Shown here: piece after piece, positions 2,753 to 62,086 of the stretch
Layout: the number at the start of each line of letters is the position of its first letter
Position numbering within the stretch: the stretch's first letter is position 1
Assembly (NCBI RefSeq): GCF_900109785.1
Contig: NZ_FOBH01000007.1
Location: 62,001 to 126,000 of the forward strand
From: Nitrosovibrio tenuis
GTDB taxonomy: Bacteria > Pseudomonadota > Gammaproteobacteria > Burkholderiales > Nitrosomonadaceae
Length of the DNA: 64,000 nt
Direction: 5' to 3'
Position numbers and translations under genes: made by a program
The notes under the pieces: model-generated
The model's input: the letters and a program-made list of their open reading frames with translations, nothing else
Told to the model about the DNA's origin: nothing
Database searches by the model: none

Positions 2753-2940
2753 CGGCTGAAATAAGCAATGATCCAATTACCGTAAACTCAGCAAAATTCA
2801 CGTAATTGGTCTGCATCGACAGCATTGCGCGTATCGAGTGTGCCTCAGCGTACAGACCAGAAGGGCGAGTTCATTTACTCTGCTATCAAAGATGATCTTG
2901 CCGTAACCCTTATTTCAGAAGAACAAATAGGAGAACATTT

Positions 2941-3402
2941 ATGAATAACGACGAAATTGTAGACATGCTGAATGGCCTGATCGAAATCTCCCGCGACGGA
3001 ATGGAAGGCTTCAAGACCTGTGCGGAAGATGTGCGCGATCCCTCGCTCAAGATGTACTTCCAAAATCGTGCGCAAGGTTGCCTGGAAGCCGTTCGTAATT
3101 TGACTGCCGAGGTGAGAAAATACGGCGGTGAACCTGATACAAGTGGGAGCGCGGTAGGTGCGCTGCATCGCGCCTGGGTGGATATCAAAACAGCCATTTC
3201 AAACCAGGATAATATCGCGGTGCTCGAAGAATGCGAACGAGGCGAAGCTGCGGCCATGATAGCCTATGAAAATGCGCTGAGAGGAGATATGCCGGGCGAT
3301 CTGCGCGCGCTTCTCGAAAATCAATATGAAGGCGCGAAAAGAAACCATGACCGGGTACGCCAGCTCCGCGACACGGCCCGGCATCATCCCGACCTGGTTT
3401 GA
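2941..3402 (+). CDS. PA2169-type four-helix-bundle protein (DUF2383)
   Basis: A 153-residue, almost entirely alpha-helical protein matching the DUF2383/PA2169 family, a ferritin-like four-helix fold of unknown function often linked to stress responses. Typical features are the N-terminal LNGLIEISRDGMEGF helix and the late ALLENQYEGAKRNHDRVRQL helix. A good ribosome-binding site (AGGAG) sits about six bases before the ATG. No signal peptide is present, so it is cytoplasmic. It stands alone between the protease and a convergent lipoprotein gene. Confidence 0.82.
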   Translation: MNNDEIVDMLNGLIEISRDGMEGFKTCAEDVRDPSLKMYFQNRAQGCLEAVRNLTAEVRKYGGEPDTSGSAVGALHRAWVDIKTAISNQDNIAVLEECERGEAAAMIAYENALRGDMPGDLRALLENQYEGAKRNHDRVRQLRDTARHHPDLV

Positions 3403-3639
3403 ATGGCGAGCCGGGCTTCACCCTATTGTTCGGTGCAATATCGAGCAGAGCCCGGCCTGCCTTGGTTGTTCAGGATGGTGGACAGCAGCTCAACCCATTG
3501 CGATGGATTACGGTGGTTCTTGGCTTATAGCCTCCCTCATGCTTCCACTCATCCTGCATCTTCAGGTGGTTGGCTTGCCTATTTAACCTATCCACACTTC
3601 ATCAAAATCCAACAAGACTCATATCTCAACAAATTGGGC

Positions 3640-26704: not shown

Positions 26705-27382
26705 CTAATCCCGCCTCAGCCTGGCAACATTATCATAGAGCCATGCGACCAACGCCGGCGCATTTGCACCATGATGTATTTCGGAATGGCAACCGGGACA
26801 AAGCGCAACAGCATTCGATACCACGTCTGGCCCACCCTCCGCCAATTGCCACACATAATGCAGCTCCAGATAAGGCAGGCCGTCGGCTCCACTAAATAAG
26901 GCCGGTTTTTCGCAGCATTCGCACACACCTCCAGCTTGTTGCAGAACCCAGGCCTTAACCGAAGCATCCCGTTGAAAGTGGGTAACCGCCATTCGCCTGG
27001 ACTTCGGGCTGGGATTACCCTGCGGTCTGCGCAGATTTCTTTGACGGGCCTGCTCTCGTGCCGCGATCTCAAAAGCAACAATGGGTACTCGCCTCTGCCC
27101 TTCAATTTGTTCAAGCAGTTTTTCGATCCGGGCCGCGACGCCGGAATCGATGTTTCTTGCCGGTTTGAGACCTGGCAGCCAACCGCGTCCCATAAGCGAT
27201 AGCACGTAGGAAATGTTTTGCATTCGAAGTTCATAGGCTTTTTCTGTTCGCCCGAACTTTTGCATCAGTTTCCTGTAATACTGCTTTGTTATAAAGAGCC
27301 GGCCAGCTCGCTCGTTACGTTGCATCTCGACGTAGGATTCAACCGCGGCTTCCAGCTCTTCCTCGGTCCAGCCGCCGTTCAT
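26705..27382 (-). CDS. HNH endonuclease
   Basis: A 225-residue protein. The C-terminal 80 residues are an HNH nuclease: zinc-type Cys pairs (VCECCEKPA and LCPGCH), a His in LELHYVWQLAEGG, Asn in SNAVALCPGCH and the final His in HSEIHHG. The first metal-site His is followed by Tyr-Val instead of the common His-(Ile/Val), a small deviation. The N-terminal 100 residues (GWTEEELEAAVESYVEM) are the helical module commonly found on such stand-alone nucleases. It could be a restriction or homing-type enzyme; no methylase is adjacent. Confidence 0.83.
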   Translation of the reverse strand: MNGGWTEEELEAAVESYVEMQRNERAGRLFITKQYYRKLMQKFGRTEKAYELRMQNISYVLSLMGRGWLPGLKPARNIDSGVAARIEKLLEQIEGQRRVPIVAFEIAAREQARQRNLRRPQGNPSPKSRRMAVTHFQRDASVKAWVLQQAGGVCECCEKPALFSGADGLPYLELHYVWQLAEGGPDVVSNAVALCPGCHSEIHHGANAPALVAWLYDNVARLRRD

Positions 27383-36976: not shown

Positions 36977-37150
36977 CTTGCTTGATTAGATGCGCCCCAC
37001 GCTCAACCATCGCATCCTGAACCGGCCTGATTTCAACGGATCCACTCGGCCCGCCACGGCAGCAGCGGCCTGCAAAACCGCTGCATTGCCGTCGGCCGCC
37101 ATATCCTGAATGACGGTGCCATTCTGATCACGCGCATTAACTACCTGGCC
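36977..37150 (-). pseudogene. Fragment related to the giant prophage protein
   Basis: Minus-strand translation VVNARDQNGTVIQDMAADG, then AAVLQAAAAVAG and, after a one-base frame change, GSVEIRPVQDAMVERGA. The prophage protein at 52607-55387 reads VVTARDKNGTVIQDVATDG, AVQQAAATVAG and GSVEVRPVEEAMGERGA. About 50 codons are shared. The homology stops abruptly near 37150, where the copper-protein remnant begins in the same open frame. Confidence 0.75.
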
Positions 37151-37700
37151 TTGCTTGGCTCCATACTGCACGCCGTGGCAACCAGGATCACATCCGAGCC
37201 TCGCGACAACGGTATCCATGGTTGAAAGATCGGGCCGGGTATCGATGATGGTGATGGTTTCGCCCAACATATTCGCGGTTACCATACTGTTTCCTTTTGG
37301 ACTCATGGGTGTCTGGATGGGTAGCGCCCCAACCGGGCCGGAAATTGCTCCGGAGACAGAATCATAGTTGGCAATCAGATTGATCGTCTTGAGCACGACG
37401 TGATCATTCATGTCGACAATGGTTACCGTACTGTCGAGCAGATTAGCAACATAATATTTGCTCGCATTGGGCATCATCCCAACCGCAATAGGATGACCGA
37501 ACCGGCTGCCCGATGGCAGATGGAGTCAATCCGGTCAGATGGAAATCAAACTGAGTGGTATCACCGGTAAACACATTTGGAGTTGCCATTTTTTTCCCAT
37601 AATGGCTCATCCAGTGTGCATGGTGATTCCCCGTCCGATATTGATGCGCCATTCGATCCCCGTTGCGAGCGGCGCCAACACCACCACGGAGTCTGTATCG
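37151..37700 (-). pseudogene. Remnant of a YVTN beta-propeller/copper-protein gene
   Basis: The minus strand encodes NVFTGDTTQFDFHLTGLTPSAIG, then in another frame HPIAVGMMPNASKYYVANLLDSTVTIVD, TANMLGETITIIDT and GCDPGCHGVQYG. These are YVTN-type propeller repeats of a surface metalloprotein like those in ammonia oxidisers. A frameshift near 37500 separates the two parts, and the 3' end is replaced by prophage-derived sequence at about 37150. Confidence 0.6.
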
Positions 37701-46813: not shown

Positions 46814-47035
46814 CTAGGTGGCTAGGTGGTCAGTGGTCCCTTTGCACTGGAACTCTTTGTCGAGCTTAACGGATTCGATACGAGCGAGCCTGTCCGCTTC
46901 TTTTCGGTCTTTGGTTTTAAGGCTGAAAACGATCTGAGAGGAAGGATAAAAGCTGAGGAGGTCTTTAGGGACGCGCCTGCGGAAATAGTAGGTTCCGCTA
47001 CGGTTAAATACATGAGTTTGAGAAGCCACATCCAT
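46814..47035 (-). pseudogene. Tyrosine recombinase N-terminal remnant (DUF6538)
   Basis: Translation from ATG 47035 gives HVFNRSGTYYFRRRVPKDLL, then IVFSLKTKDRKEADRLAR. This is the N-terminal DUF6538 arm-binding module of phage and island tyrosine integrases. The core-binding and catalytic domains are gone. It lies 90 bp left of the left attachment-like site, outside the serine-recombinase element. Confidence 0.7.
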
Positions 47036-47125
47036 TCTCCAAGTGTAACAGTTGTGCGACACTTGGAAACTGAACCTGTTGATTTGCCTGACTGTTGTTT
47101 CTTATCAAGCACCTGAGGATGAGCT

Positions 47126-47144
47126 GGCGTCCCCAAGGGATTCG
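47126..47144. repeat. Left attachment-like site (attL/R), copy of tRNA-Glu 3' end
   Basis: GGCGTCCCCAAGGGATTCG is the 3' end of tRNA-Glu (minus strand), matching GGCGTCCCCAAGGGGATTCG at 62012 except for one missing G. Here the bases just outside read TGG, i.e. the CCA end of the original tRNA gene, which the intact tRNA copy at 62014 lacks. This is what insertion into the tRNA 3' end leaves behind. Confidence 0.8.
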
Positions 47145-47229: not shown

Positions 47230-47331
47230 ATGCTCCCACACCAAGTCTTCCTCTTCATCTGCTGGTCGATACTGGCGCTATCGGTTGTCTGGGCGCTGGT
47301 CAAGGGACTGTGGCAGACGTTTTTTTCTTGA
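47230..47331 (+). CDS. Possible 33-residue membrane peptide at the left end
   Basis: An ATG six bases after a TGCTATACT extended -10-like sequence starts a 33-residue peptide with one membrane segment (LFICWSILALSVVWALV) and a TGA stop. It overlaps the end of the giant gene by 32 bp on the opposite strand. Too short to be sure; it could be a phage membrane peptide. Confidence 0.3.
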   Translation: MLPHQVFLFICWSILALSVVWALVKGLWQTFFS

Positions 47332-50300
47332 CCTTCTCGTTCAAGGATTTCATTGTCAGGGTTATCAGATCGTCAATTAACCTGACTTGCCCCTTCTCCG
47401 CCCCTTTCTCAACGAGATCGCGCTTGCGCTTGCGTAGTTCCTGAACTCTCTTTTCAGCGGCATTGGCCGCACCGATGAGTTCCCATTCCGGATTCTCACG
47501 CTTGTACTCGGCAACGTCCTCACGGTTCTTCATCCGCCCTTTGATCTCGGCTTCATGGCCGTTGATCCGCTTCAGGTTGTCGTAGAACTCGTTGCCTTGG
47601 GATGACTGCCCCCGGGTATCACCGTAGAACCTTCCTAAAAGTACAGTCTTATGTGGCGGCAAATCTTCCCCGGTAAATGCAGAAGTAACCATCTGCTCGG
47701 CTTTTAGATATTCCCGCCCAACTCCGCCCGTTGCTTGCGCAATCAGATAGTCAATCTGATCCGGGGTTGGACTGAACATGCCAGGCTGATACTTCGTTCC
47801 ACCGCTGATCTTGTTGATCCCTTCGGCCAGCAACTTACTGAACACGCTCGCCGTATCCTTCGCCCGGGTGAATCCGGGAGTCGGGTTCATGGAATTGAAA
47901 TCTTCCCGGGAAATCGGCTTGCCGGTCCAGTCCTTGTTTTCGGCCAATGCGGCCAGCGGATCTATTGCGGTCGGGGAAATTGTTTGCAGCGACATGCCGG
48001 CGTTACCAACGGGATTGAATGCATCGAGAATCGAGTCCATCAGCTGGATAGTGCGTTTCGCCGGATCCTTGAAACCGGACATGGCAAACTCTGTGGTAAT
48101 GCGCCCTATGTTCGGCAGTACGTTAAAGCCCAGCGGCATGGGAACGGAAAGATACTTCCCGTCACCGATCGGCAGAATCAGGCTGCGCGATTTGACGAAC
48201 TCAGGCGGTTCTTCGTCATCCCCCATCCCCGACATAGCCAGGAGCATGGCTTGCATACCGCCAAGCAAGATCCCTCCAGTAATTATCTTCTTGCCAGCCG
48301 GGCCTTTCATCGTTTCAGCCAGTCTCGCGGTGCCCTGAACGGAAGCGTTGAAGAAGGCGTACAGCGCACCTATCTGGCGACCCGCGGCACCGCGTTTATT
48401 GAAGTTGACCGTAAGATTCTTGGCCAGGCTCGCCGCCTGCTGCTTGCTCAATCCCTGCTCGAGGCCGGTCTTATAAGCCGCCAGGCGCACCGCGTTTTCC
48501 ATGGAATCGTTATAATCCGATAGCCATTCGAACAGCGGCTTGACGGCCTTATCCGCGAGCACCTTCTCCGGCGCGTTCAGGAGGCCCCCGGCAGTGATAA
48601 CCTTCCCGATGCGGGTGGTTTGCCACCAGTCGGGGTTAAGCCCTTTCTCAAGCGCTTCCGCGCGGTCCTGGGCATTCTTGTACATATCCCGGAAACCAGT
48701 TTTCCCGCCTTCCTTCTGGAACTCTTCCCAGAGTTGGGACCATTTATTATTGACCGCATTGCCCTTGCGCACGCCGCGCATGCTTTGGTAAATGGCAAGT
48801 AATGCTGGACCGGTGCGGGATAGGACGATTTTCTGCTTGCCAGCCAGCGGCGTCGAAGACAGGTTAAGAGCGGCGCCTTGAACGTCCCGGGTAAGGTTCA
48901 CTATCCCGAATATCGGGTTGTACTGGGTATTGATCGAGGCAAAGTACCGGGTGACGATCGAAGAGGCATTCAGCACAACGCCTACATCGTCCTGGTCGAG
49001 ATTCTTCAAAGACAATGCCATGCGTTTCGCTCGAGGGTCATCCTGGAACACAACCGAGCGTTCCTGAATATTCCCCTTGGAGTCGGGTATCCGGGCGACA
49101 ATCACATCATCACGGCTTTTGTAAGTCGGATCGGTACGCTCTTCCACCAGTCCAGTCGATTTGTTCACGTCGCGAATCGTCGGCGGCACATCCACTTTCC
49201 AGAAATCAGGATTGGGATTCTCTTTCGCGAGTCCGACAAGAGCCGTAGCCACGCGATTCTTTTCACCGCGGATAATGTTCTTCTCGCGCTGCTGCGCGAT
49301 GTTGGCCAGGATGTCCACGACAGGCCGCTTTGATCCAGTTGCGCGTTTCGCTGCATTGCCTTTCACCGAGAAACCCTGCCCGGTCCCGTTGCCGAAAGCA
49401 TGATCCATATCCTCGCGCATCAGGGGCACATAATGCTTATATGCGCTCTCCCAGGTATCGATGGTTTTCTGCGACTCCAGACCATAATCCACCAGCACTT
49501 GACGGGATCTGGCATTGATCGCATCAACACGTTTGGCCAGGGCCTCATACAGCTTCTTCTTGTCGGGATCGAGACTCGCCAGATAGTCACGCGCATCCTG
49601 AGTGTCCATGCCTGATCCACCATCCTGCATATCAGGATCAGGATTGATCTTGGCAATTTGCTTGTTGCGCTCTTCCGCGTGCCGGGCCCAGAGGTATTCT
49701 TCAAAGTCTGCCAGCTTCACGCCATTGATGCGCATGATCTTGATAAGCGGGTCCAGCTCGGTATCGATGAACTCTTTTACGCGCGTTGCCGAACGGCCAT
49801 GGAATAGTTCCTCTTGCAAGTACGCATTGATATTGTCCGCTATCTGCTTGCCCGTTGCCTTGATCGCTTCGGTGACGCGCTTGAGGTCGATGTTTTTATC
49901 CTGGAGGGCATGCAGGATCGTGTCGAGGCGCGACGGTTCGGGCGCATCCCAAGAGGCGTTATTGCCCGGTGCGGAGCGGGAGAAACGGATGTCGCGATTG
50001 TTGGAGTCGAATTCGCCATTATTGCCGGTGGCGGATTTGATTTGGGTTGGTCTGAACACGACATAATTACCGTATTCATCGACAATACCGTCGTGTCCGC
50101 CTTCGATCACTTGTTGACGAATTGCCTCAATCTCTGCGAGGTCGGTAAGTTCGGTAGACCATACGCGCAGGGGGTTCTGTATAGATAGAAACACCGGATA
50201 GACTGTTGGTGTAGTTTCCTTAAGTGCTACGCGCCATAGTGTTGGCGTACTGCCTGTCCTCGCTGAAGTACACCCCCAGAGATGCGGATTCGTAGGTGCC

Positions 50301-50464
50301 GCGCGTTCCGGACCTAGACGGATCGAAAACAAAGAATCCGCCCCCCGGGGTGCCGTGATAAACGACCAGCGGTTCCCCGTTCTCATCCACCACCTTGGAA
50401 TCCTTAAACCATTTGCGGAATGCTGGAGTGTCGGTTTGGGAGTCCCGGCTGAAATGCGGATCAT
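47300..50464 (-). CDS. Giant polyvalent prophage protein, part 4 (C-terminal)
   Basis: The true coding part runs from about 50228 to 47300, entering after a frame change in the ADP-ribosyltransferase domain. It starts with the end of that domain (YPVFLSIQNPLRV, GGHDGIVDEYGNYVVFRP, IKSATGNNGEFD). A long helical region follows, then an LPD38-like segment (SINTQYNPIFGIVNLTRDVQG), then helices to the end at VKKKTSATVP. Large polyvalent proteins of this class are carried in the virion and injected, by family knowledge. Translation upstream of 50228 in this frame is spurious. Ends as the last minus-strand gene before the left att site. Confidence 0.8.
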   Translation of the reverse strand: MIRISAGTPKPTLQHSANGLRIPRWWMRTGNRWSFITAPRGADSLFSIRLGPERAAPTNPHLWGCTSARTGSTPTLWRVALKETTPTVYPVFLSIQNPLRVWSTELTDLAEIEAIRQQVIEGGHDGIVDEYGNYVVFRPTQIKSATGNNGEFDSNNRDIRFSRSAPGNNASWDAPEPSRLDTILHALQDKNIDLKRVTEAIKATGKQIADNINAYLQEELFHGRSATRVKEFIDTELDPLIKIMRINGVKLADFEEYLWARHAEERNKQIAKINPDPDMQDGGSGMDTQDARDYLASLDPDKKKLYEALAKRVDAINARSRQVLVDYGLESQKTIDTWESAYKHYVPLMREDMDHAFGNGTGQGFSVKGNAAKRATGSKRPVVDILANIAQQREKNIIRGEKNRVATALVGLAKENPNPDFWKVDVPPTIRDVNKSTGLVEERTDPTYKSRDDVIVARIPDSKGNIQERSVVFQDDPRAKRMALSLKNLDQDDVGVVLNASSIVTRYFASINTQYNPIFGIVNLTRDVQGAALNLSSTPLAGKQKIVLSRTGPALLAIYQSMRGVRKGNAVNNKWSQLWEEFQKEGGKTGFRDMYKNAQDRAEALEKGLNPDWWQTTRIGKVITAGGLLNAPEKVLADKAVKPLFEWLSDYNDSMENAVRLAAYKTGLEQGLSKQQAASLAKNLTVNFNKRGAAGRQIGALYAFFNASVQGTARLAETMKGPAGKKIITGGILLGGMQAMLLAMSGMGDDEEPPEFVKSRSLILPIGDGKYLSVPMPLGFNVLPNIGRITTEFAMSGFKDPAKRTIQLMDSILDAFNPVGNAGMSLQTISPTAIDPLAALAENKDWTGKPISREDFNSMNPTPGFTRAKDTASVFSKLLAEGINKISGGTKYQPGMFSPTPDQIDYLIAQATGGVGREYLKAEQMVTSAFTGEDLPPHKTVLLGRFYGDTRGQSSQGNEFYDNLKRINGHEAEIKGRMKNREDVAEYKRENPEWELIGAANAAEKRVQELRKRKRDLVEKGAEKGQVRLIDDLITLTMKSLNEKVKKKTSATVP

Positions 50465-50987
50465 CCTTGACTAAGTCTGTTTCCCCAGATATTCTCCCTT
50501 CAAAGCTCCGCGCTTGAGCCAAGCCGGGCAATTGCAGCCCGGAACGTGCCAAGACCGCGGGGCTTTTTTTCGGCCCCTTCCCGCTCTTCACGAATCGCCG
50601 CGCCGGGATCAGAAACCGATGAATGATTTCCGCATCCGTCATCTTCATACTGGCCAGAGCGGGAACGTTCTTCCTGAGCCAGGCACGAACGATGGCGATT
50701 GCACGTTGCACCATCCCTATCTGGGGATTGGTCTGTGCCAGTTCGGCGAGTACCTCTTCCGCAGCTATCAGCCGATCTTTCTCGACCGCCATGTCCAGCC
50801 CGTACTGCACCGCCTTGTCCTCAACCTTCGAGCGCCATCCGACTACGACCTGCTTAAGAATAGGCTTCAATTCCTCGCCAAACGCTCCGCGCAAGCCGAA
50901 GTGCCCCAGCGTTTCATGGAACACCACACGAACAATGTCCCTCGGGGCTGCGCATCTCAGAGGCGACGATGTACACCTTGCCGTCAT
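50220..50987 (-). CDS. Giant polyvalent prophage protein, part 3 (zincin + ART)
   Basis: The coding part runs from about 50943 to 50228. It opens with RDIVRVVFHETLGHFGLRG, an HExxH zincin motif of the PolyVal metallopeptidase type, then a helical linker, and then the first half of an ADP-ribosyltransferase-like domain (FRKWFKDSKVVDENGEPLVVYHGT, followed by FFVFDPSRSGTRG and GVYFSEDRQYA). The frame is lost at ARST and continues in the next frame: deleting one T restores ARSTKETTPTVYPVF. Same for its upstream end, where part 2 stops. Confidence 0.75.
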   Translation of the reverse strand: MTARCTSSPLRCAAPRDIVRVVFHETLGHFGLRGAFGEELKPILKQVVVGWRSKVEDKAVQYGLDMAVEKDRLIAAEEVLAELAQTNPQIGMVQRAIAIVRAWLRKNVPALASMKMTDAEIIHRFLIPARRFVKSGKGPKKSPAVLARSGLQLPGLAQARSFEGRISGETDLVKDDPHFSRDSQTDTPAFRKWFKDSKVVDENGEPLVVYHGTPGGGFFVFDPSRSGTRGTYESASLGVYFSEDRQYANTMARST

Positions 50988-52650
50988 AGAAGAACCCTTC
51001 CGGCTGCCCTACCGCGCCTTGGGACATCTGTTGCGAATTTGTTTCGCGCACGGCATCAGGGACAGCCGAATCATTCATGTCGCTGACAACGACCATTTCA
51101 GGCGCGTTCTTCCATGCTGAAGAGATGGCATCGACAATGGTCTGAACAGCGGATTTGTGCTCGCCAGAAACGACAAGGCCACCGCTATGGGTGGCCTGTG
51201 TCTTCTTGAATGCCGCAGCTTTTAAGCGCTGGCGGATGGCGGAGATTCGTTCGGATTCAGCCTTTCTGGAGAATATGCCTTCGAGCTTGCCCCTTAGTAC
51301 AAGTGCACTTGACCTGTTGAGAACTTGTTCCAGTATTCCGGGTCTTTCGCTGCCCTCGCTTGATATAAGGGACTGGATGAGTATGCCGCGACGCATTGAA
51401 GCCTTACCTGCTCTTGCAGAGCCGCCCAATCCAGTTGCTTCTGCGTGGGTGAACCGGTCAAGCCCAACGGGTCGTCCAAGTCTATCTGTGAACTGTCTGT
51501 TTGCGAAGTCATAGCGATAGCTCGTTATCTCTGGAAATTTGTTATGCAATGTTTCGATGAAAGTATGGATCAAAGCGCGCGTCTTTGCAACATCATCCCC
51601 GCTCCAATCCAGCGGAGGAACCCCGTTTTTCGGATCACCCGCTATCTGTTGCGGCGCGGCTTCAAGATGCTTGACCGTGCCGAACCGCAGAGCAGAGGAC
51701 AACATATTGCTGGTGCGCCGGATCAGGGAATCTGCGGTTAATCCGGCAGGGTCGCCGATGAATTTCCGTTTTGTGTTATACGCCCAGTTCGCCACTGCTG
51801 CATACACCGCTTGACCGCGTTCGCCAGTCGAAAAATGGCTGACATCGATGAAGACCTCTCCGTTGTCGCGCTCGTAGACATAGAACTGCTTGCCGTTCGG
51901 CAACTTGAATACATAGCGGTGATCTGCGCCAGATTCATCCCTTTCATCTTCCCGCGTTCCATCGCCGACATATACAGCATCAGGGTAGACTTCTGAAAAT
52001 ACGCCTTTAAGCGATGTCTTGTGGCTTATCGCGTGCCTGAACAACTCATCAACGTCCGCGAGTTCAACGAGAAAGTCATGGGCGAACGCCACGTCTTCCT
52101 TGTTTGGAGTGCGACTGAATTTAGGCGTACGCTTCATTGCTTCAAGGGTACTATGAAAATCTTCATACCGGCGACCTTCCCATCCGAGAAGCTCGCTCCC
52201 ATAAATGCTGGGATCATCTGCCTCTATTATGCCGCGTTTTGGCATTCCCCGAGATTGCCCTTCCGTAGATTTCGGTTGATCTTCCGTTTTGGGTTGACCG
52301 AAAGACTCAAGCTCTTTGTCTTTGGCGGCATCGCGCTCTGCCCGCCTTCTTTCCCATTCCTCAGATTTCTTTTGTTCCTCTGGGTTTCCGGCCAGCGCCT
52401 TTTTAGGCTGCCCAAATCCGTGCCGCTCTTTATATGCAGCATTCTTTTCTTTTTGACTTGATCTGACCGTCTCTTCATGCAAGCCAATAAGGTGATCAGC
52501 GCTTCCACTCATAATTGCGCGCTGTATATGGCCGAAGTCAATTTTTCCGCTTTCCTTTCTGTACGCTTCGATAACGGCCTTGTTTTTAACCATTGAGGCG
52601 CGGAGCTTATGCTGTTCGTTTTTTTTGCGCTTGAGATAGTACACGCCCAC
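50914..52650 (-). CDS. Giant polyvalent prophage protein, part 2
   Basis: The coding part runs from about 52634 to 50943. It begins with a Lys/Gln-rich helical stretch (RKKNEQHKLRASM), a Glu/Lys low-complexity segment, then a folded region (FAHDFLVELADVDELFRH, GADHRYVFKLPNGKQFYVYERD, AVANWAYNTKRKFIGDPAGL) shared by large polyvalent phage proteins but of unknown activity. It ends GFFYDGKVYIVASEMRSP, after which one extra base shifts frame; the zincin of part 3 follows exactly as in homologues (DGKVY-HE). The open frame before 52634 overlaps the end of part 1. Confidence 0.75.
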   Translation of the reverse strand: MGVYYLKRKKNEQHKLRASMVKNKAVIEAYRKESGKIDFGHIQRAIMSGSADHLIGLHEETVRSSQKEKNAAYKERHGFGQPKKALAGNPEEQKKSEEWERRRAERDAAKDKELESFGQPKTEDQPKSTEGQSRGMPKRGIIEADDPSIYGSELLGWEGRRYEDFHSTLEAMKRTPKFSRTPNKEDVAFAHDFLVELADVDELFRHAISHKTSLKGVFSEVYPDAVYVGDGTREDERDESGADHRYVFKLPNGKQFYVYERDNGEVFIDVSHFSTGERGQAVYAAVANWAYNTKRKFIGDPAGLTADSLIRRTSNMLSSALRFGTVKHLEAAPQQIAGDPKNGVPPLDWSGDDVAKTRALIHTFIETLHNKFPEITSYRYDFANRQFTDRLGRPVGLDRFTHAEATGLGGSARAGKASMRRGILIQSLISSEGSERPGILEQVLNRSSALVLRGKLEGIFSRKAESERISAIRQRLKAAAFKKTQATHSGGLVVSGEHKSAVQTIVDAISSAWKNAPEMVVVSDMNDSAVPDAVRETNSQQMSQGAVGQPEGFFYDGKVYIVASEMRSPEGHCSCGVP

Positions 52651-55387
52651 CCATCACATCCTGAACCGGCCTAACCTCAGCGGTTACATCCGGCACGGAT
52701 TTGGCAGCAGAAGCCGCAGTTTGAGGAGGAGCCATCTCTTTGCGTTGATCGGGAATTGCCAATTCTCCCGGCTGCGCATCAGCGCGTGATTCTTTCGCCT
52801 TAACCGCCTCCCCGATCTGCCTCAATAACTCAGCAGTTTCAGCGTCCACTTTCTTCATCCCGGTAGCCTGCACCCGGAACCATTTCGATTCTAGAGCAGC
52901 ATCCGTGCGCTTGCCGTCTATGACTTCTTTGGCGCGAGCAATGGCGTTATGCAGGCCGCGCTCCTTCCCGGACTGCTTCGCCGCAGCCCGGCGCTTGATG
53001 AGGGATTCTATGAGGGGGCGGAGGCCATTGTTGCCTTCAGATGTCTCCTGTGATAGACTTATTTCGGGAGTGGGGGCAGGACTAGCCGTGACATTCCTCC
53101 CTTCATCGCTGGTAGTGCCAGTCGTAGTATCGGCGCCACTCCTCTTCTCATAGGCTGTCATCAGCCACGTTTTTTGATCCCCATCCCAATCCAGTCGCAC
53201 TATAGCGCGGTGATCCTTTGATTCAAGAATTACCCTGTTCTTGGAGCGCGTCTTGACATCCATCGCGTCAATCGAGGATTGCAAATCTTTAAGAAGATCG
53301 GAGCGCCCTTTGGCAACGAGCTTCGCAATTCCAAAACCATCCTCGAAGTTCTTTTCAGCGGTTCCCTCGCTCCCCCAAACAAGATCAATATCTCCAACAT
53401 CCTTGTGATGGAGGGCGCCTACGGCCTCACCTTCGCGATGTTCGATGAGTTTCTTAATTGCATCTTTGGCGTTTCTATAAAACCCCGTGAAAACTCTTCC
53501 GAATTTGCCTGATTGGGGCGCCCTACTGTTAGCACCCCGCTCCCCCATCGCCTCTTCAACCGGCCTGACTTCAACCGATCCATTCGGCCCCGCCACGGTA
53601 GCCGCTGCTTGCTGAACTGCCGGATTCCCATCGGTCGCCACATCCTGGATAACGGTTCCGTTTTTGTCGCGCGCGGTTACAACCTGATCTGCTTGCGCCG
53701 GCTTCTCATCGATGCCATAGCCCAACGCCGTGCCCATCTGGCCATTCATGGCCGCTTGCAGGGTAGCGTCATCGCGATATAGCAGCGTTCCCCGGCCAGG
53801 CACTTCAGCGGCTTTCACACCTGGGGGCAATGTATGCGGCATCGGCTCGCCAAGAGTCAGCAATACTCCCGGCTTACGGCCTTCGCCGAGCGCGTTTAGC
53901 TGTGCGTTGAGGGTTTGTATCGGCTCGGGAGTTGGTTTGTCGGGAACGTTAAAAAGCACTCTGTTTATCGCTGGCAACGCGGCTCTTGCCATGTCGCGAC
54001 TCGCCTCCGTCATTACAGCCCCAGAGTCTGTCCAGTGATACTTATCTGCCGCAGCGTCATACGCTCTCTGTTCCTCCGGTGTGAGCGCAAGGGCGACATG
54101 ATTTTTAGGATCATTGGTATAAGCAACGACTATACGATTGCCGTTTTCGTCCAGCACCGAATTTACAGATGGCGCTTTGCCAGATGCAACAAACGAACGG
54201 AGACTTTCTATTGCACCATGCGTTGCCTGAGATTGAGCCTCGGGGGCATCCTGAACCATTTTGTTGATGTCACCAATATGGTCAGATTCCTCATCCAGCA
54301 CATTGCTCTGGATAGCATCGGGCGCTGTGCTCCGTATCTCGTCCGCCTTATCCCTGCCGGTTGCAATAATGCGGTCCACTGCCTCAGAAGTGGACTCAGG
54401 CGCGTTCGCTATTTCAGGATCAACGCCTTGAGTAGCGCGACGATCAAGTTCATTCTGGGCAGCGGCTTTAGCACGTTCGCCACCTCGAGCAGCGGTGTAC
54501 TTCAGTACAGCATCCGAGTGCTCGGTTACGGGCTTGCCGGCTATCATCGGAACGCCCCCGCCCAGCACGCCGCCGCCGATCGCGCCCATGGCACCGCCAA
54601 ACAGCGTATCCTTGATGTTCTCTTTCGTCGTCGGGTTGTCGAATGAGGCAAGCTGCTCGAGCGGGTTTTGAACAAGTTCTTCCGAGCCCTCGATTGCCGC
54701 ACCCTTCCCAGCGCCTTTCGCCATCGCCCCCGGCAGTGTTGTTGCGGCAAACTTCTCAGCCAGCTTCACCCTGCCCTCTTTCGTCATGGCAGCCAACGCC
54801 CACTGCTGGGGACCAAAGGCTTGCTCTATCGCTCCAACAGCAGCAGCACCCATCGTCGCAATAGCGATCGCCTTGGCGTCTTTCTCGTTCTTGGGATCGT
54901 TCAGGATCTGCTTGTCCCGAATACCGCCGAACGATGGCAAAGCGGCAATAGCGGCAGGCCCGAGCCAGGAGACGACTTGCCCCACGCCAGCAACCAGAGG
55001 CGCAGCAGGACCGGCGAATGGCGATAGCGCGGTAATTCCCTGACCAAGTACCCTCGCCCCTACGATCCCGCCCATGGATGAGGCAGCGTTCCCAGTGGCT
55101 TCGGTTACAGCCTTTAGCGGTTTATCCGCAATGTCCGAAAGCTCGTTTACAGCGGTGGGGTTTGCATCTATAACACTCTGACCATACTTCTTGAGTGCGT
55201 TATCTTTCGAGATGCCAGGGATAAAGTCAGCGGCAGCCTGTCCAGCGCCTTTTATACCGGCGCCAGCCGCGCGCTTGGCGGAAGCGATGAACCCGCCTTC
55301 AACTTCTTTTTTGTCCAGGTCACCGTTGAACTCGACATAACCCGGCTCTTCGTCGTCCAGTTGGCCAGCAAACTCAGTGAATGCCAT
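52607..55387 (-). CDS. Giant polyvalent prophage protein, part 1 (N-terminal)
   Basis: A 926-residue frame starting at ATG 55387 with GAGGA upstream. Residues 35-300 are rich in Gly/Ala helices with several hydrophobic segments (FIASAKRAAGAGIKGAG, GIVGARVLGQGITAL, LFGGAMGAIGGGVLGGG), suggesting membrane activity. Residues about 627-745 match the phage barnase/EndoU/colicin-E5/RelE-like nuclease fold: FGRVFTGFYRNAKDAIKKLI, GEAVGALHHKDVGDIDLVWG, AIVRLDWDGDQKTWLMTAYE. The frame ends in a run of eight A (about 52634); one A fewer would join part 2. Fused length about 2,690 residues. Confidence 0.82.
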   Translation of the reverse strand: MAFTEFAGQLDDEEPGYVEFNGDLDKKEVEGGFIASAKRAAGAGIKGAGQAAADFIPGISKDNALKKYGQSVIDANPTAVNELSDIADKPLKAVTEATGNAASSMGGIVGARVLGQGITALSPFAGPAAPLVAGVGQVVSWLGPAAIAALPSFGGIRDKQILNDPKNEKDAKAIAIATMGAAAVGAIEQAFGPQQWALAAMTKEGRVKLAEKFAATTLPGAMAKGAGKGAAIEGSEELVQNPLEQLASFDNPTTKENIKDTLFGGAMGAIGGGVLGGGVPMIAGKPVTEHSDAVLKYTAARGGERAKAAAQNELDRRATQGVDPEIANAPESTSEAVDRIIATGRDKADEIRSTAPDAIQSNVLDEESDHIGDINKMVQDAPEAQSQATHGAIESLRSFVASGKAPSVNSVLDENGNRIVVAYTNDPKNHVALALTPEEQRAYDAAADKYHWTDSGAVMTEASRDMARAALPAINRVLFNVPDKPTPEPIQTLNAQLNALGEGRKPGVLLTLGEPMPHTLPPGVKAAEVPGRGTLLYRDDATLQAAMNGQMGTALGYGIDEKPAQADQVVTARDKNGTVIQDVATDGNPAVQQAAATVAGPNGSVEVRPVEEAMGERGANSRAPQSGKFGRVFTGFYRNAKDAIKKLIEHREGEAVGALHHKDVGDIDLVWGSEGTAEKNFEDGFGIAKLVAKGRSDLLKDLQSSIDAMDVKTRSKNRVILESKDHRAIVRLDWDGDQKTWLMTAYEKRSGADTTTGTTSDEGRNVTASPAPTPEISLSQETSEGNNGLRPLIESLIKRRAAAKQSGKERGLHNAIARAKEVIDGKRTDAALESKWFRVQATGMKKVDAETAELLRQIGEAVKAKESRADAQPGELAIPDQRKEMAPPQTAASAAKSVPDVTAEVRPVQDVMGGRVLSQAQKKRTA

Positions 55388-55920: not shown

Positions 55921-56145
55921 TTAATTGTGTTTCGACGCTCCCGCTGATTTTGGCTTCTTCAGGACAGCAGCACTGACTTCAGGCACATCATCTTTTCCGT
56001 ATTTCTCTGCAAGCCATGCTATTCCCTTTGGCGTTACCCTTGTCTGGCGGAATCCGAAACCATCGTTTTCTCCGGTTTTTACTTCAAACCTGCCGTTATC
56101 AATGTGTTCTTGATAAGGCAACCAGACTCCGCGCCTGAAGATCAC
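55921..56145 (-). pseudogene. KilAC-domain fragment of the antirepressor
   Basis: The frame reads FRRGVWLPYQEHIDNGRFEV then FGFRQTRVTPKGIAWLAEKYG, the end of a phage KilAC DNA-binding domain. Upstream in the same frame (56146-56250) the sequence continues backwards as ISDVAKIIGWNPHAFFDQL, which completes the domain and joins the AntA gene after a one-base deletion near 56250. So this is the C-terminal third of the antirepressor, not a separate gene. Confidence 0.7.
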
Positions 56146-56156
56146 GCCATCCTCTT

Positions 56157-56696
56157 TCAGTTGATCAAAGAACGCATGAGGATTCCAGCCAATAATCTTT
56201 GCAACATCCGATATGCACTGACTCGTCCTTGCCTCAACGTATCGATTACAAACTCGACGGCAGGCTTTGCGGCTTCAAGCTGAACAAGTGCCGCCTGCTT
56301 GGCTTCGTACTGTTCCGCCCATGCTCTCGCTGCTACAGCAGGGTTGGCAAAGTCAGGAAGCGAAAGAACTGGAGTCTTGGCGCGCTTCTCGCATTCAATG
56401 AAATATTGCCGGGCCTGCTTGCCCTTCTCGTTGCGCTCCACCATGGCAAGTTCTTTGCCCATATCCAAGGTAACGACGTATTCAACGGCCGGGCGACCCC
56501 CTTGGGGTTTTTTGGTGTTTTCCGAAAAACTCACGAAGTCATGATTTTCGATAAACCCGTACTGTTGGATACGATCTTTAATCCAAGTGGTGAAGTTTTC
56601 CCCGTTTCCAAGGAACGCATGCAGATCACGGGCATTAATTGTCTGCACTTGGTCACCACCTATAGCGCGGCCTTCGACTTTAATGAGTTCGTTCAT
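56157..56696 (-). CDS. AntA/AntB antirepressor, C-terminus frameshifted
   Basis: A 179-residue frame. Residues 15-95 are an AntA/AntB domain: QTINARDLHAFLGNGENFTTWI, QQYGFIENHDFV, then EYVVTLDMGKELAMVERNEKG. Residues 125-150 are a helix (AARAWAEQYEAKQAALVQLE) leading into the KilAC domain. A one-base deletion near 56250 replaces that domain by a random tail (SAYRMLQRLLAGILMRSLIN). GAAGGAG precedes the ATG. Antirepressors switch the lysogenic state by binding or displacing repressors. The start overlaps the end of the upstream gene by one base. Confidence 0.82.
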   Translation of the reverse strand: MNELIKVEGRAIGGDQVQTINARDLHAFLGNGENFTTWIKDRIQQYGFIENHDFVSFSENTKKPQGGRPAVEYVVTLDMGKELAMVERNEKGKQARQYFIECEKRAKTPVLSLPDFANPAVAARAWAEQYEAKQAALVQLEAAKPAVEFVIDTLRQGRVSAYRMLQRLLAGILMRSLIN

Positions 56697-58203: not shown

Positions 58204-58983
58204 TTACTCTGCAATAAACTTCCGCCCGTTGACCTCGTAAACCGGCTTGCCCTTAGATGTGCCGATCTGCTTTGCTCCATCGGGAAGCGCATTGATCCGC
58301 GCGGGCGCCTGCGGCCTTCCGCCTTGAAGCTGCCCGGCAAGGGAGTTGACCTTGCCCGCTATATCCCCGTTATCTCCATACTGATTAAGCGTTTTCCCGA
58401 TCAGGCCGGCGGCTGTCTTCTGCCCTGATGTGCCATACAGAGGCTTGCCAGCATCATCTGCCAGAATGCGCCGAGTACCATCGGACATGACAGCGACAAA
58501 TCCTTGATCCGTTTCAAGCGTTTTGCGGACTGTCGGCCCGAGAGCGCCCGCTCCACCGGCGCGCCGACCGGCCGCAAGTCCGCCGCTACCATACGCCTTT
58601 GCCATCGCCGTATTTTTCTCAGCGCTTGCGTTGTAATTTCCGATCTGCGCATCGGCAACTCGTCCTTTAGTCGCTGTGTCCTGCTTATCAAGCAGATACT
58701 TTGCATATTTCTCAGGATCAAGGGTGGATGTCGCCCAATGATCCAGGTCGATTGTCTGCTCTCCGGTTCCGGAAATATTTACCTTCCATTTGCCATCATT
58801 TGGATCATCCGGGTTAACCTTGACTGGACGATCTTCCAACTGAATCCCGCCGCGCTTCAGGTTATCCATGGCCCCGTCTATATTCCCGCGCTTTAGGTCC
58901 ATCGCGGCATCGAAAATACCGCCTTTTTTTGCTGCTACCAGAGAGTCTAGCCACGGACTGATCTCCTTATCCATGCCATGCAT
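58204..58983 (-). CDS. Prophage structural-like protein, second half of a frameshifted gene
   Basis: A 259-residue frame. Translation of the same frame upstream, VFGDLANQPAKLNAIRAAAAMHGMD, shows the coding sequence begins before the first ATG, i.e. it continues the gene at 59012-59494 after a one-base frame change near 59040. Residues 40-90 contain a repeated LKRGNIDGAMDNLKRGGIQ helix and DKQDTATKGRVADAQIGNY. The C-terminus has GTSKGKPVYEVNGRKFIAE. The pattern is typical of phage virion-associated proteins but no family is named. Confidence 0.7.
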   Translation of the reverse strand: MHGMDKEISPWLDSLVAAKKGGIFDAAMDLKRGNIDGAMDNLKRGGIQLEDRPVKVNPDDPNDGKWKVNISGTGEQTIDLDHWATSTLDPEKYAKYLLDKQDTATKGRVADAQIGNYNASAEKNTAMAKAYGSGGLAAGRRAGGAGALGPTVRKTLETDQGFVAVMSDGTRRILADDAGKPLYGTSGQKTAAGLIGKTLNQYGDNGDIAGKVNSLAGQLQGGRPQAPARINALPDGAKQIGTSKGKPVYEVNGRKFIAE

Positions 58984-59011
58984 TGCAGCCGCGGCACGGA
59001 TGGCATTGAGC

Positions 59012-59494
59012 TTAGCCGGTTGGTTTGCCAGATCGCCGAAAACCGACCTGTTTCACGATTTCATGTATTGGATTGAAATCTCCGTCCGGTTGAGCTGGCT
59101 CCGCTTGTTTTTGAGCTGCTGGAAGGCTGGCAAGGCTACCCGCTTGATAAGCGGCTGGCGCGCTCCCAGAAAATGCCGCATCAGGGATCATGCCGTTCGC
59201 TTGTTTGAACGACGCCAATCCGCAAGGGTTCTCCATTACAAGTCGCTGTTGCGGCGCGGCACTGGTCGGCTTGATGCTTTCGCCCTTAAAAACGGGGATC
59301 AAAGAGCTAATGAACCCTTCCCGGTCTGGACCTTTTTCACCCTTGGCAGCGGCTTTCGCATCGGCTTGCTGCTGGCGGAGAGCATCCATATTCTCCCAGT
59401 GTTCATTGCGGTTGTTGTAATATTGATTTTGCAAACCGAATTGGATACCATTTTGAATACCATCCGCCAGTCCTGCCGCTAATCCACTAGCCAT
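59012..59494 (-). CDS. Prophage structural-like protein, first half of a frameshifted gene
   Basis: A 160-residue frame starting at ATG 59494, with GGAGG eight bases upstream. It opens MASGLAAGLADGIQNGIQFG, then a coiled-coil-like stretch (NEHWENMDALRQQQADAKAAAKG), then Pro/Ala/Gln low complexity. The end NPIHEIVKQ is followed by a one-base frame change leading to the 58204-58983 frame; the fused protein would be about 430 residues. Glycine-rich N-termini of this type occur in phage internal virion proteins. Confidence 0.7.
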   Translation of the reverse strand: MASGLAAGLADGIQNGIQFGLQNQYYNNRNEHWENMDALRQQQADAKAAAKGEKGPDREGFISSLIPVFKGESIKPTSAAPQQRLVMENPCGLASFKQANGMIPDAAFSGSAPAAYQAGSLASLPAAQKQAEPAQPDGDFNPIHEIVKQVGFRRSGKPTG

Positions 59495-59808: not shown

Positions 59809-60261
59809 TCAGTTTGATTCTATCAGAGCCTGATTCAAAAGGTTGATTCTATCTAGATACTCCTTATACATTTCTGGATGTCTTGCTCTTGTAAATTCAA
59901 CCCTGTCGCGAGAATCTTTCCGGTAAGCGGTGCAGTCGTAGCAATCCAGCGATGAGTGCTTGATTGAGTAGTGCGCCGGGATTTCCATTCTCGTTGCTAG
60001 ATAGGCCATCACCTGGTCGCTCGTCCAATCCTCAATGGGTTGAAGCCGTATCATTCCCTCGATTACATCCCCATTCCGGGAAGTGGACTTATGATTTTCA
60101 TCATTGCGCTGACCGTAAACTATCTCGGTTGCGCCAATTTCCTTTGCTTTAGCGAGCAATGGCAAACTGATATTTTCCCAGCAACAGCTTAGGTAATTTT
60201 GTATCATGACCGGTTTCCTGCCGGCTACCATCTGACCTATGCGCGTCCAGTCTACAGGCAC
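59809..60261 (-). CDS. PAPS-reductase-family protein, 5'-truncated
   Basis: A 150-residue frame with the C-terminal two thirds of a phage-type phosphoadenosine-phosphosulfate-reductase-like protein: GATEIVYGQRNDENHKS, IRLQPIEDWTSDQVMAYL, then SSLDCYDCTAYR with a Cys pair. The family's N-terminal SGGKDS nucleotide loop is absent. The reading frame is open upstream (ARVEQNKREGIPADVVPVDW) to about 60340 and then hits a stop. The usual start is therefore lost; GTG 60261 is only the first candidate. Probably non-functional. Confidence 0.6.
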   Translation of the reverse strand: MPVDWTRIGQMVAGRKPVMIQNYLSCCWENISLPLLAKAKEIGATEIVYGQRNDENHKSTSRNGDVIEGMIRLQPIEDWTSDQVMAYLATRMEIPAHYSIKHSSLDCYDCTAYRKDSRDRVEFTRARHPEMYKEYLDRINLLNQALIESN

Positions 60262-60446: not shown

Positions 60447-60536
60447 AGTCTTCTTGCTTGACAATAACCAGCGTTGGAACGCCAGACGTTCAACTTGCCG
60501 CAGAGCTTGCGGTTCCTTTGCTACTTAAATTCATTC

Positions 60537-62051
60537 ATGACAAAGCTGAGCGCAATAAGGTGCGCGTTTTACCTTCGGAGCTCGAAAGATCGCAGCGACA
60601 TTTCGATAGACGCGCAGCGTCGGGAGCTCCAGCAACTAGCGAAGTCACGCAGTTATCTGACCGTCGCTGAATTTGTTGATGCCGTCGAAAGCGGAAAAGA
60701 TGACAACCGCCCCGGTTTCCAGCAGCTTATCCGCGAAATAAAGAATAAGGATCGGGCGTGGTCTGTAGTGATCATGCTCGATACTTCCCGCCTTTCCAGA
60801 AATCAATACATCGCCCACACATTCAAGCACGATTGCGCCAAGCGTGGCGTAACAATACTTTTCTCAAAAACCCCTGAGCTTGACGGTGTAACCGGAATCA
60901 TCCTGCCCGCCGTTCTTCACGCAATGGACGAGGTTCATAGCTTCATGTCCAAAGAAAAAGGGCTGGCGGGAATGGCTGAGAACGTGCGCCAGGGATTCAG
61001 AGCGGGAGGCCGGGCCCCAGTAGGGTACAGGCTCGAGACAATCGCAACCGGAGCAATTCGGGACGGTTCACCTGTCACCAAGTCAAAACTTGCGCCCTCA
61101 GAAATGGCGCCCAAAATAGCCGCCTATCTGAAAGGTCGCGCAACCGGCCAAAGCGGAACAAAGTTAATTGTAAGTCTTGGGTTAGAGCTCTCTCGTAACA
61201 CTATGAACGGGGTTGAATGGAATGCCCTGACCTATGCCGGGCATACTGTCTGGAACGTACACAACGAAACGACGAAGGAGGGTTATGTCGGCGGGGTCAA
61301 GCGCAGGCCCAGGGAAGAATGGGTGATTCAACGCGATACTCATCCGGCTCTGATTACCGATGCTGAAGCAGAGGAAATATTAGCTCAGCTAAACCGAGGC
61401 AGACTGAAGAACAACCGCACGAAGGCAGTTCACCTGCTAACGGGTATCCTCGTTACTCCTGATGGCGTTGCTTGGCACGGCAACGGCGATCTTTATCGGG
61501 CCGGGAAGAAGAACATCAAAGCAGAGCGGGTAGACTCCACTGTGATCACTCAAGTTGCCTCAGACTTGCAATCACCAGCATTCATCAAGTCGCTTACCGA
61601 GTCCGCGCACAAGTCTGTAAAACTGACCGACGATGACGCAGAGGGCGCATCGATCAGGAACGAAATAAAAAGGCTGGACGCCAAAATAAATCGATTGTCG
61701 AATTTATTATCCGAGACAACGGCAGTAGATACGCTACTTAAAAAAATTGAAGAGTTTGAGAGTAATAAAGCATCGCTGATTGAACAGCTCTCTCAAATTG
61801 AAACGGCTCGCAAGCAGTCCAAGGCAATGCTGCAAATTACCGAAGCAGACGTGAAAGCAATGCTTGAGACAATGGCAACTAGCCTGCCTGATCTCGACCG
61901 CGAGTCGCTAAAAGACTTTCTGCGCGGCCTTATAGACCACATTACTTTGGACGCTTCTAGTCTAGCCTGTTGTATTCATTACAAAATCAGGCTATCAACT
62001 GGGGATTTCAGGGCGTCCCCAAGGGGATTCGAACCCCTGTACTCACCGTGA
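60537..62051 (+). CDS. Large serine recombinase (phage integrase)
   Basis: A 504-residue recombinase counted from ATG 60537; an in-frame TTG at 60474 is less likely. Catalytic domain, residues 9-145: AFYLRSSKDRS with Ser16, VVIMLDTSRLSRN and KTPELDGVTGIILPAVLHAMDE. A recombinase domain follows (GMAENVRQGFRAGGRAPVGYRL), then a zinc-region-like segment lacking the usual Cys set, and a coiled coil (AKINRLSNLLSETTAVDTLLKKIEEFE). The last 13 codons are read from the tRNA-Glu 3' half, giving RGFEPLYSP and the stop, so the attachment site is inside the gene end. Confidence 0.9.
   Translation: MTKLSAIRCAFYLRSSKDRSDISIDAQRRELQQLAKSRSYLTVAEFVDAVESGKDDNRPGFQQLIREIKNKDRAWSVVIMLDTSRLSRNQYIAHTFKHDCAKRGVTILFSKTPELDGVTGIILPAVLHAMDEVHSFMSKEKGLAGMAENVRQGFRAGGRAPVGYRLETIATGAIRDGSPVTKSKLAPSEMAPKIAAYLKGRATGQSGTKLIVSLGLELSRNTMNGVEWNALTYAGHTVWNVHNETTKEGYVGGVKRRPREEWVIQRDTHPALITDAEAEEILAQLNRGRLKNNRTKAVHLLTGILVTPDGVAWHGNGDLYRAGKKNIKAERVDSTVITQVASDLQSPAFIKSLTESAHKSVKLTDDDAEGASIRNEIKRLDAKINRLSNLLSETTAVDTLLKKIEEFESNKASLIEQLSQIETARKQSKAMLQITEADVKAMLETMATSLPDLDRESLKDFLRGLIDHITLDASSLACCIHYKIRLSTGDFRASPRGFEPLYSP
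62012..62031. repeat. Right attachment-like site in tRNA-Glu
   Basis: GGCGTCCCCAAGGGGATTCG, the 3' acceptor/T-arm part of tRNA-Glu, repeated with one base missing at 47126. It lies within the last codons of the serine recombinase. Confidence 0.8.
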
Positions 62052-62086
62052 AAGGGTGATGTCCTAGGCCACTAGACGATGGGGAC
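62014..62086 (-). tRNA. tRNA-Glu (TTC)
   Basis: A complete cloverleaf on the minus strand: acceptor GTCCCCA/TGGGGAC, D-arm TCTAGTGGCCTAGGA, anticodon stem TCACC/GGTGA with loop CTTTCAC (anticodon TTC), T-arm GGGG-TTCGAAT-CCCC. The CCA end is not encoded (GCCCT follows), unlike in tRNA-Ala next to it. The 3' half also encodes the end of the serine recombinase on the other strand. Confidence 0.93.

What the first reader, a model, noticed from the sequence alone, without database searches (positions are those of the whole stretch)
47300..55387. One giant phage polyvalent protein (about 2,690 codons) split into four frames
Seen: the four consecutive minus-strand frames join exactly when one base is removed at about 52634 (run of eight A), 50943 and 50228; across each joint the protein family sequence continues without a gap. 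The fused chain has Gly/Ala membrane-active helices, an EndoU/barnase-like nuclease, an HExxH zincin, an ADP-ribosyltransferase and an LPD38-like tail. Known: large polyvalent proteins are packaged in phage virions and combine host-targeting enzymes. Inference: a multi-effector injected with the genome.
Basis: partly seen in the sequence, partly recalled or inferred. Interest (0 to 1): 0.75.

Follow-up and report, generated by a model that had tools for sequence, protein, structure and literature searches.

The report
Recently broken phage polyvalent protein gene
An old prophage remnant in a soil ammonia-oxidising bacterium carries a giant multi-enzyme protein gene of the kind that phages pack into their particles, here split into four pieces by apparently recent frameshifts while intact single-gene relatives exist elsewhere; the protein family is already known.

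Summary
Four consecutive minus-strand frames (47300-55387) are pieces of one gene for a phage 'large polyvalent protein'. Pfam finds PBECR1, LPD37, ART-PolyVal (split across two frames) and LPD38. A relative (L080, 2,323 aa) matches all four pieces in order in one frame, and a same-genus contig (L122) does so over 1,810 aa. Two of the three joints are bridged by intact relatives; the first lies in a linker without counterpart. The metallopeptidase motif is HExxxH, not HExxH, a variant already described. The host is a Nitrosospira. The gene is the last one in a ~14.9 kb remnant prophage in a tRNA-Glu gene, related to Bcep22-like podoviruses, with at least two more frame-broken genes. This copy is therefore very probably dead, but only recently: conserved residues are as well kept as in intact relatives. 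In the relative phage JC1 the homologous giant protein was found in virions by mass spectrometry (published). The most useful extra finding is that the C-terminal ~890 residues, of which LPD38 is one part, form one constant module at the protein's end, while the N-terminal cargo is swapped or even absent. New member of a known kind.

The parts
52607..55387 (-). Piece 1 of the polyvalent gene (926 aa frame)
   Evidence: relatives L024, L021, L079, L080 and L122 match its N-terminal region (within residues 28-408) at 69-80%
54164..55300 (-). Conserved Gly/Ala-rich N-terminal region (piece 1 residues 30-408), no Pfam family above cut-off
53138..53416 (-). PBECR1 nuclease-like domain (piece 1 residues 658-750)
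   Evidence: Pfam PF18809, 32 bits, E 1.9e-7; 47.6% identity to Bordetella phage BPP-1 Bbp10 over residues 587-751
50914..52650 (-). Piece 2 (578 aa frame)
51358..52074 (-). LPD37 domain
   Evidence: Pfam PF18853, 353.5 bits
50220..50987 (-). Piece 3 (255 aa frame); homology begins at residue 14-17, the start before it is likely out-of-frame overhang
50568..50942 (-). HExxxH zincin-like metallopeptidase module (HETLGH at 50901-50918; AEEVLA follows)
   Evidence: H, E, G, H and the later E invariant in 6 of 6 relatives aligned; model of the L080 counterpart
50232..50387 (-). First part of ART-PolyVal (profile positions 1-45)
   Evidence: Pfam PF18760, 38.3 bits
47300..50464 (-). Piece 4 (1054 aa frame); homology begins at residue 83-88, the start before it overlaps piece 3 out of frame
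50009..50209 (-). Second part of ART-PolyVal (profile positions 51-140)
   Evidence: 29.9 bits, just under cut-off 31.2 on its own
47303..49984 (-). Constant C-terminal core (~890 aa), one fold across phage polyvalent proteins
   Evidence: 36-member alignment A1, model pLDDT 77, BFVD matches
47645..48214 (-). LPD38 domain inside the core
   Evidence: Pfam PF18857, 171.9 bits
47126..47144 (.). Copy of the 3' end of tRNA-Glu: likely far attachment site of the element
   Evidence: 20 alignment columns, 95% identical to 62012-62031, E 0.013, longest exact word 14 bases
62012..62086 (-). tRNA-Glu(ttc), the likely integration site
   Evidence: ARAGORN
60474..62051 (+). Serine recombinase of the element, its frame running into tRNA-Glu
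   Evidence: Pfam Resolvase 80 bits; 71-72% identical recombinase at the same site in G020
59809..60261 (-). PAPS reductase fragment
   Evidence: Pfam PF01507; 8 of its 10 phage hits are Burkholderia phage records, JC1 best
58204..59494 (-). Second broken gene: counterpart of the 410-435 aa gene upstream of the polyvalent gene in L080, L079 and L021, split over two frames here
55921..56696 (-). Third broken gene: antirepressor Ant, split over two frames; one 254 aa ORF in Nitrosospira Nsp11

Best explanation
This is a recently inactivated gene for a phage large polyvalent protein of the LPD38 class. It is the terminal late gene of a deletion-worn prophage, distantly Bcep22-like, in a tRNA-Glu gene of a Nitrosospira. 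In intact relatives the protein is one chain, mostly about 1,600-4,400 residues. A constant C-terminal core of about 890 residues goes with the virion, and an N-terminal string of exchangeable enzymes is carried along. The likely mechanism has four steps. The protein is packaged in the particle with the internal virion proteins encoded just upstream. It is ejected with the DNA. It may be cut by its own HExxxH metallopeptidase. The freed nuclease (PBECR1) and ADP-ribosyltransferase then act on host RNA and proteins early in infection. Shown here: single-gene ancestry, domain content, the break pattern and the gene neighbourhood of relatives. Shown in print for a relative: presence in virions. 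Inferred: ejection, self-cleavage and host targets. In this genome it probably does nothing as a whole.
For: Domains in the pieces. All four pieces collinear in one frame of L080, and in L122 up to the contig end. 31 of 34 core-containing frames not cut by a contig edge run in one frame through core and at least 300 residues of upstream cargo. Two other genes of the element are frame-broken. 5 frame breaks in 10.1 kb of element genes against 0 in 10.9 kb of eight chromosomal genes compared with relatives (p about 0.026 for equal rates). att-like repeat and recombinase at tRNA-Glu. A sister element at the same tRNA-Glu/gltX site in G020 has most of the gene deleted. Recent break: at 154 columns conserved in the other 34 relatives the window core departs at 2 and intact L079 at 3; private changes 19 versus 27. 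Late-gene setting: internal virion protein and virion structural protein upstream of the intact copy in L079. JC1 gp69, whose C-terminal end matches the core (hhalign probability 100, E 1.2e-65), was found in virions with 51 unique peptides (PMC9144972, passages).
Against: Joint 1 is not bridged by any relative searched. No expression or virion data exist here for this phage. The frame-break rate test is small and made after the fact, and assembly error at a few sites is not excluded without reads. The att-like repeat is short (E 0.013). Of the 25 cargo regions scanned none has a PBECR1 match, so this exact cargo set is unmatched among those relatives. LPD37 has no known function. The second half of ART-PolyVal falls just under its cut-off on its own.
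Confidence: 0.85

Rival explanations
1. Sequencing or assembly errors: the gene is intact in the living strain and the four frames are an artefact.
For: No in-frame stop inside the four long frames, and conserved residues fully kept; one break is at a homopolymer run of eight.
Against: Eight chromosomal genes (10.9 kb) compared with relatives show no break, while two other genes of the same element are also broken. No run longer than four bases was seen beside breaks 2 and 3 (read by eye). Four of the five frame changes have one sense and one the other. The element seems to lack most phage genes anyway.
Confidence: 0.13
2. Programmed ribosomal frameshifting links the four frames into one protein.
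For: A run of eight A lies at the first joint; the frames overlap.
Against: Intact relatives need no frameshift: 31 single-frame copies not cut by a contig edge. Three programmed shifts in one gene would be unprecedented as far as I know (recalled). Joints 2 and 3 show no comparable run.
Confidence: 0.02
3. Four separate genes with their own starts (a natural split of the polyvalent protein).
For: Some relatives show partly split arrangements: L060 has the core as a stand-alone 815 aa gene, and L052 has only ART plus core, with a separate 1,897 aa ORF further upstream.
Against: The window splits fall inside domains: ART-PolyVal is cut in two, and joint 2 cuts just before the HExxxH helix. Pieces 3 and 4 begin with stretches that show no homology in their own frame. 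None of the relatives examined is split at these places.
Confidence: 0.02

Closest known systems
Large polyvalent proteins of phages (Iyer et al. 2017, PMC5512222)
   Same: Several unrelated enzyme domains in one chain (PBECR, MPTase, ART, LPDs), encoded among late virion genes; [quoted passage not shown] the HEXXXH metallopeptidase variant is described there.
   Different: This copy is broken and sits in a remnant prophage. The constant ~890-residue C-terminal module described here is wider than LPD38 (189 positions).
DarB-like protein gp69 of Burkholderia phage JC1 (Bcep22-like, Lessievirus)
   Same: LPD38 C-terminal core homologous over 803 aligned columns. Similar neighbourhood: acetyltransferase, virion-associated protein, PAPS reductase, a hypothetical protein, two virion-associated proteins, then the giant gene.
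   Different: Cargo includes lytic-transglycosylase-like, methylase-type and HepA/helicase-type regions and LPD3 (the paper's table) instead of PBECR1, LPD37, MPTase and ART; 4,515 aa.
Single-frame relatives: Nitrosospira Nsp11 (L024, 2,227 aa), MAG 56-18 (L122, at least 1,810 aa), G020 (L021, 2,278 aa); viral contigs L079 (2,558 aa) and L080 (2,323 aa)
   Same: Same N-terminal region (69-80% identity) and same C-terminal core (33-80%; only its beginning is reached on L122); L080 and L122 also match the LPD37 and metallopeptidase regions.
   Different: One unbroken frame; middle modules differ (L079 has ddrB-ParB and RadC).
Bbp10 of Bordetella phage BPP-1
   Same: PBECR1 region 47.6% identical over piece 1 residues 587-751; a ~2,050 aa gene beside the tail genes.
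   Different: Only the PBECR1 region of piece 1 matched; BPP-1 is not among the records listed for piece 4 (searches list a part of their 150 and 147 records).

Membership tests
Phage large polyvalent protein (Iyer et al. 2017) | Two or more domains of disparate activity in one polypeptide | tested here: met
   PBECR1, LPD37, ART-PolyVal and LPD38 over the pieces; one frame in relatives. In this copy the polypeptide itself is interrupted.
Phage large polyvalent protein (Iyer et al. 2017) | Encoded near late virion genes | tested here: met
   In intact relatives: internal virion protein phrog_511 (L079) and virion structural protein phrog_8003 (L079, L024) upstream. In the window only the counterpart of the directly upstream gene and the PAPS reductase fragment remain.
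Phage large polyvalent protein (Iyer et al. 2017) | Packaged in the virion and ejected with DNA | not testable with these tools
   Published mass spectrometry for the relative JC1 gp69 (PMC9144972, passages); nothing for this element.
LPD38 (PF18857) | Score above the curated cut-off | tested here: met
   171.9 bits against 27; only match in this genome.
ART-PolyVal (PF18760) | Full-length profile match | tested here: inconclusive
   Two parts, 38.3 and 29.9 bits, cover positions 1-45 and 51-140 in two frames; the intact relative L079 matches 1-140 at 63.7 bits.
PBECR1 nuclease (PF18809) | Score above cut-off, near full-length | tested here: met
   32 bits against 27.6, positions 1-102 of 104. 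Catalytic residues and activity not tested.
Polyvalent-protein zincin-like MPTase | HExxH or HExxxH helix plus a downstream Glu helix on a small beta sheet | tested here: met
   HETLGH and AEEVLA, invariant H/E/G/H and E in 6 relatives; model of the L080 counterpart with three strands then the motif helix and later helices, mean pLDDT 69.
Polyvalent-protein zincin-like MPTase | Match to a known zincin family or fold | tested here: inconclusive
Bcep22-like (Lessievirus) prophage | Complete head, tail and lysis gene set | tested here: not met
   Element of ~14.9 kb between att-like sites; no portal, capsid or terminase among the element frames scanned (frames 55921, 59012 and 59565 were not scanned against a family library). 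It is a remnant related to, not a member of, that group.

The most novel reading that the evidence does not exclude
The C-terminal ~890 residues of LPD38 proteins (LPD38 being only a 189-position part) form one conserved structural module. It acts as the packaging and ejection handle of the protein, onto whose N-terminal side phages splice cargo enzymes. Among relatives fetched with this module it ends within 12 residues of the C-terminus in 46 of 47 frames, follows 302 to 3,463 residues in 31 frames not cut by a contig edge, and stands alone in L060. It is one fold in predicted phage proteins down to about 15% identity and has no relative found among solved structures.
Probability: 0.4. Interest if true: 0.55.

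Novelty: new member of a known kind. Interest (0 to 1): 0.3.

Why it matters
As a single locus it is ordinary: a dead prophage gene of a described protein class. It gives a clean example of a polyvalent gene caught soon after inactivation, and stages of decay in one genus (near full length, internally deleted at the same site, end fragments elsewhere). Its relatives point to a testable division of labour in these giant phage proteins: a constant C-terminal virion module and exchangeable N-terminal enzymes. If confirmed, that module would be a general phage delivery handle for proteins.

Tried and rejected
Rejected readings: programmed frameshifting (relatives need none); four natural genes (splits inside domains); sequencing error as the main cause (eight chromosomal genes show no break; not excluded). 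'Membrane-active helices' in piece 1 found no support in hydropathy. The weak Pfam hits Ntox28, DUF6232 and DUF445 are below cut-off and were dropped. The core model found no PDB relative at E 0.001 and no convincing second-look match, and no PDB sequence by profile; this is no proof of a new fold, as the model is 894 residues and multi-domain. The 259 aa frame at 58204 has no match in the phage collection at E 0.01. The Nitrosospira prophage paper search listed 12 of 38 papers, none of which looked on topic from title and abstract start. PMC10386132 and PMC9239159 were seen in passages only and not used as evidence. In one search I dropped relatives' ORFs under 150 aa or under 60% identity, and two overlapping shadow ORFs. 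In some searches, 3 of 51 frames were left out (one a duplicate record of Nsp11, two of one edge-cut contig held twice). Most relatives were fetched through piece 4, so counts about the core describe core-bearing loci only.

Full report
What is there. The finding's four minus-strand frames exist at the stated places. Their coding character is beyond chance: the longest stop-free frame is 1,056 codons, against at most 339 in 300 shuffles. Searched apart, they give PBECR1 (piece 1), LPD37 (piece 2), the first third of ART-PolyVal (end of piece 3), and the rest of ART-PolyVal plus LPD38 (piece 4). PHROGs matches run collinearly: piece 2 matches phrog_14770 up to position 2086, piece 3 from 2090, and piece 4 covers 2520-3418.

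Host. The window is part of contig 15 of a 3.1 Mb genome. A same-genus genome (G010) has its match on a contig of 444,807 bases, the length of the Nitrosospira sp. Nsp11 contig that carries the same match. The host is therefore a Nitrosospira, a soil ammonia oxidiser (recalled).

One gene. Intact relatives carry related parts in a single frame: Nsp11 2,227 aa (L024), a Lake Pavin MAG 2,056 aa (L031), G020 2,278 aa (L021), and viral contigs L079 (2,558 aa) and L080 (2,323 aa). L080 matches all four pieces in order: piece 1 within 147-895, piece 2 up to 1288, piece 3 at 1291-1411 and piece 4 at 1422-2315. L122, a contig of the 56-18 MAG, matches all four in one frame of 1,810 aa up to the contig edge. 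Of 51 frames with a core match, 3 were left out as duplicates or one edge-cut contig held twice; of the 48 kept, 14 are cut by a contig edge. Of the other 34, 31 (1,181-4,386 aa stop to stop) have at least 300 residues upstream of the core in the same frame; the rest are L060, L036 and L041. Joints 2 and 3 are bridged by relatives. Joint 1 lies in a linker (piece 1 after ~872, piece 2 1-174) that L080 lacks, so continuity there is indirect.

The element. A 19-20 base near-copy of the tRNA-Glu 3' end lies at 47126 (E 0.013), and a serine recombinase runs into tRNA-Glu at 62012, giving an element of ~14.9 kb. The polyvalent gene is its last gene. The recombinase (71-72%), the upstream gene (37%) and gltX (85%) recur at the same tRNA-Glu site in G020, where the polyvalent gene is reduced to its first ~83 and a C-terminal 246 residues. 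In the 23 genomes of the genus, pieces 1 or 4 match in 14 (9 with piece 4, 11 with piece 1; union counted by hand); long unbroken frames occur in G010, G020 and, at contig edges, G005. Piece 2 matches in 7 of 23. The PAPS reductase fragment at 59809 matches ten phage records; eight are Burkholderia phages (JC1 best, CSP3, DC1, BcepIL02, BcepMigl), all but CSP3 named Bcep22-like in the JC1 paper. JC1 has acetyltransferase, virion protein gp64, PAPS reductase, gp66, two virion-associated proteins and then the giant gp69. Its gp64 matches the virion protein upstream of the Nsp11 and L079 genes. The window element is thus most simply a deletion remnant of a distantly Bcep22-like prophage.

Dead, but recently. 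Besides three breaks in the polyvalent gene, the antirepressor and the 410-435 aa gene are each split over two frames. Eight chromosomal genes compared with relatives' ORFs show none: 5 breaks in 10.1 kb against 0 in 10.9 kb, p about 0.026, a small, after-the-fact test. Yet the core shows no relaxed selection: 2 departures in 154 conserved columns (L079: 3) and 19 private changes against 27. The breaks are therefore recent, or, less likely, sequence errors.

The constant module. Piece 4 residues 161-1054 align with 35 relatives. All 36 match LPD38 in Pfam and nothing else apart from one weak HrpJ hit. The core match ends within 12 residues of the frame's end in 46 of 47 frames (35 in L021), after stretches of 302-3,463 residues in the 31 uncut frames. 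Cargo families vary: among 25 cargo regions ddrB-ParB occurs in 6, ART-PolyVal in 5, LPD37 in 3 and LPD1 in 3. L060 has the core as its own 815 aa gene two genes after a head-closure match. The model (mean pLDDT 77) matches predicted phage proteins at E 0.001 or better 68 times; of the 50 rows shown, 37 have a query TM-score of 0.53-0.86, down to 14-16% identity, and 13 are lower (0.19-0.49). No solved structure matched at E 0.001, none convincingly in the second look, and no PDB sequence by profile. JC1 gp69's C-terminal end matches the core at hhalign probability 100 over 803 columns. That protein was seen in purified virions with 51 unique peptides (PMC9144972, passages). Calling the core a delivery handle is inference. 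Paper searches on LPD38 and polyvalent virion proteins listed none that, by title and abstract start, describes such a module; most listed papers were not opened.

Verdict. New member of a known kind.

Noticed in passing
window 37046-37210 (frame 36986-37477, -): A second short match to piece 1 (residues 547-601, 56%), so another polyvalent-gene fragment lies in the same island; the frame has no Pfam match.
   Followed up: no
window ~27.4-62.3 kb: In G006 and G010 gltX lies about 2 kb from the gene matching window 26708-27382, so ~33 kb here is an extra island (papain-like protease, tyrosinase, TonB receptor, oxidoreductase, prophage remnant).
   Followed up: partly
window 46814-47062: An 82 aa remnant with DUF6538 (seen at the N-terminus of integrases, recalled) just outside the far att-like repeat: trace of another integrated element.
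   Followed up: no
window 60474-62051; L041; G003:C16:189589-191154: A serine recombinase whose frame runs into tRNA-Glu here and, in L041, into tRNA-Glu too; a 71% relative occurs in G003 (its site was not checked). tRNA targeting is unusual for this recombinase type (recalled).
   Followed up: partly
L036, L038, L039: Short C-terminal fragments of the same polyvalent family within about 2 kb of a tRNA-Leu(taa) gene in three other Nitrosospira genomes.
   Followed up: no
Methanosarcina virus MetMV, MK170447.1 33685-42693: The best annotated phage match to the core (44.7%) is in a virus recorded for an archaeal host, while the next ones are phages of bacteria.
   Followed up: partly
L060:10061-12508: Core module as a stand-alone 815 aa gene without cargo, downstream of head-closure/virion structural matches.
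   Followed up: partly
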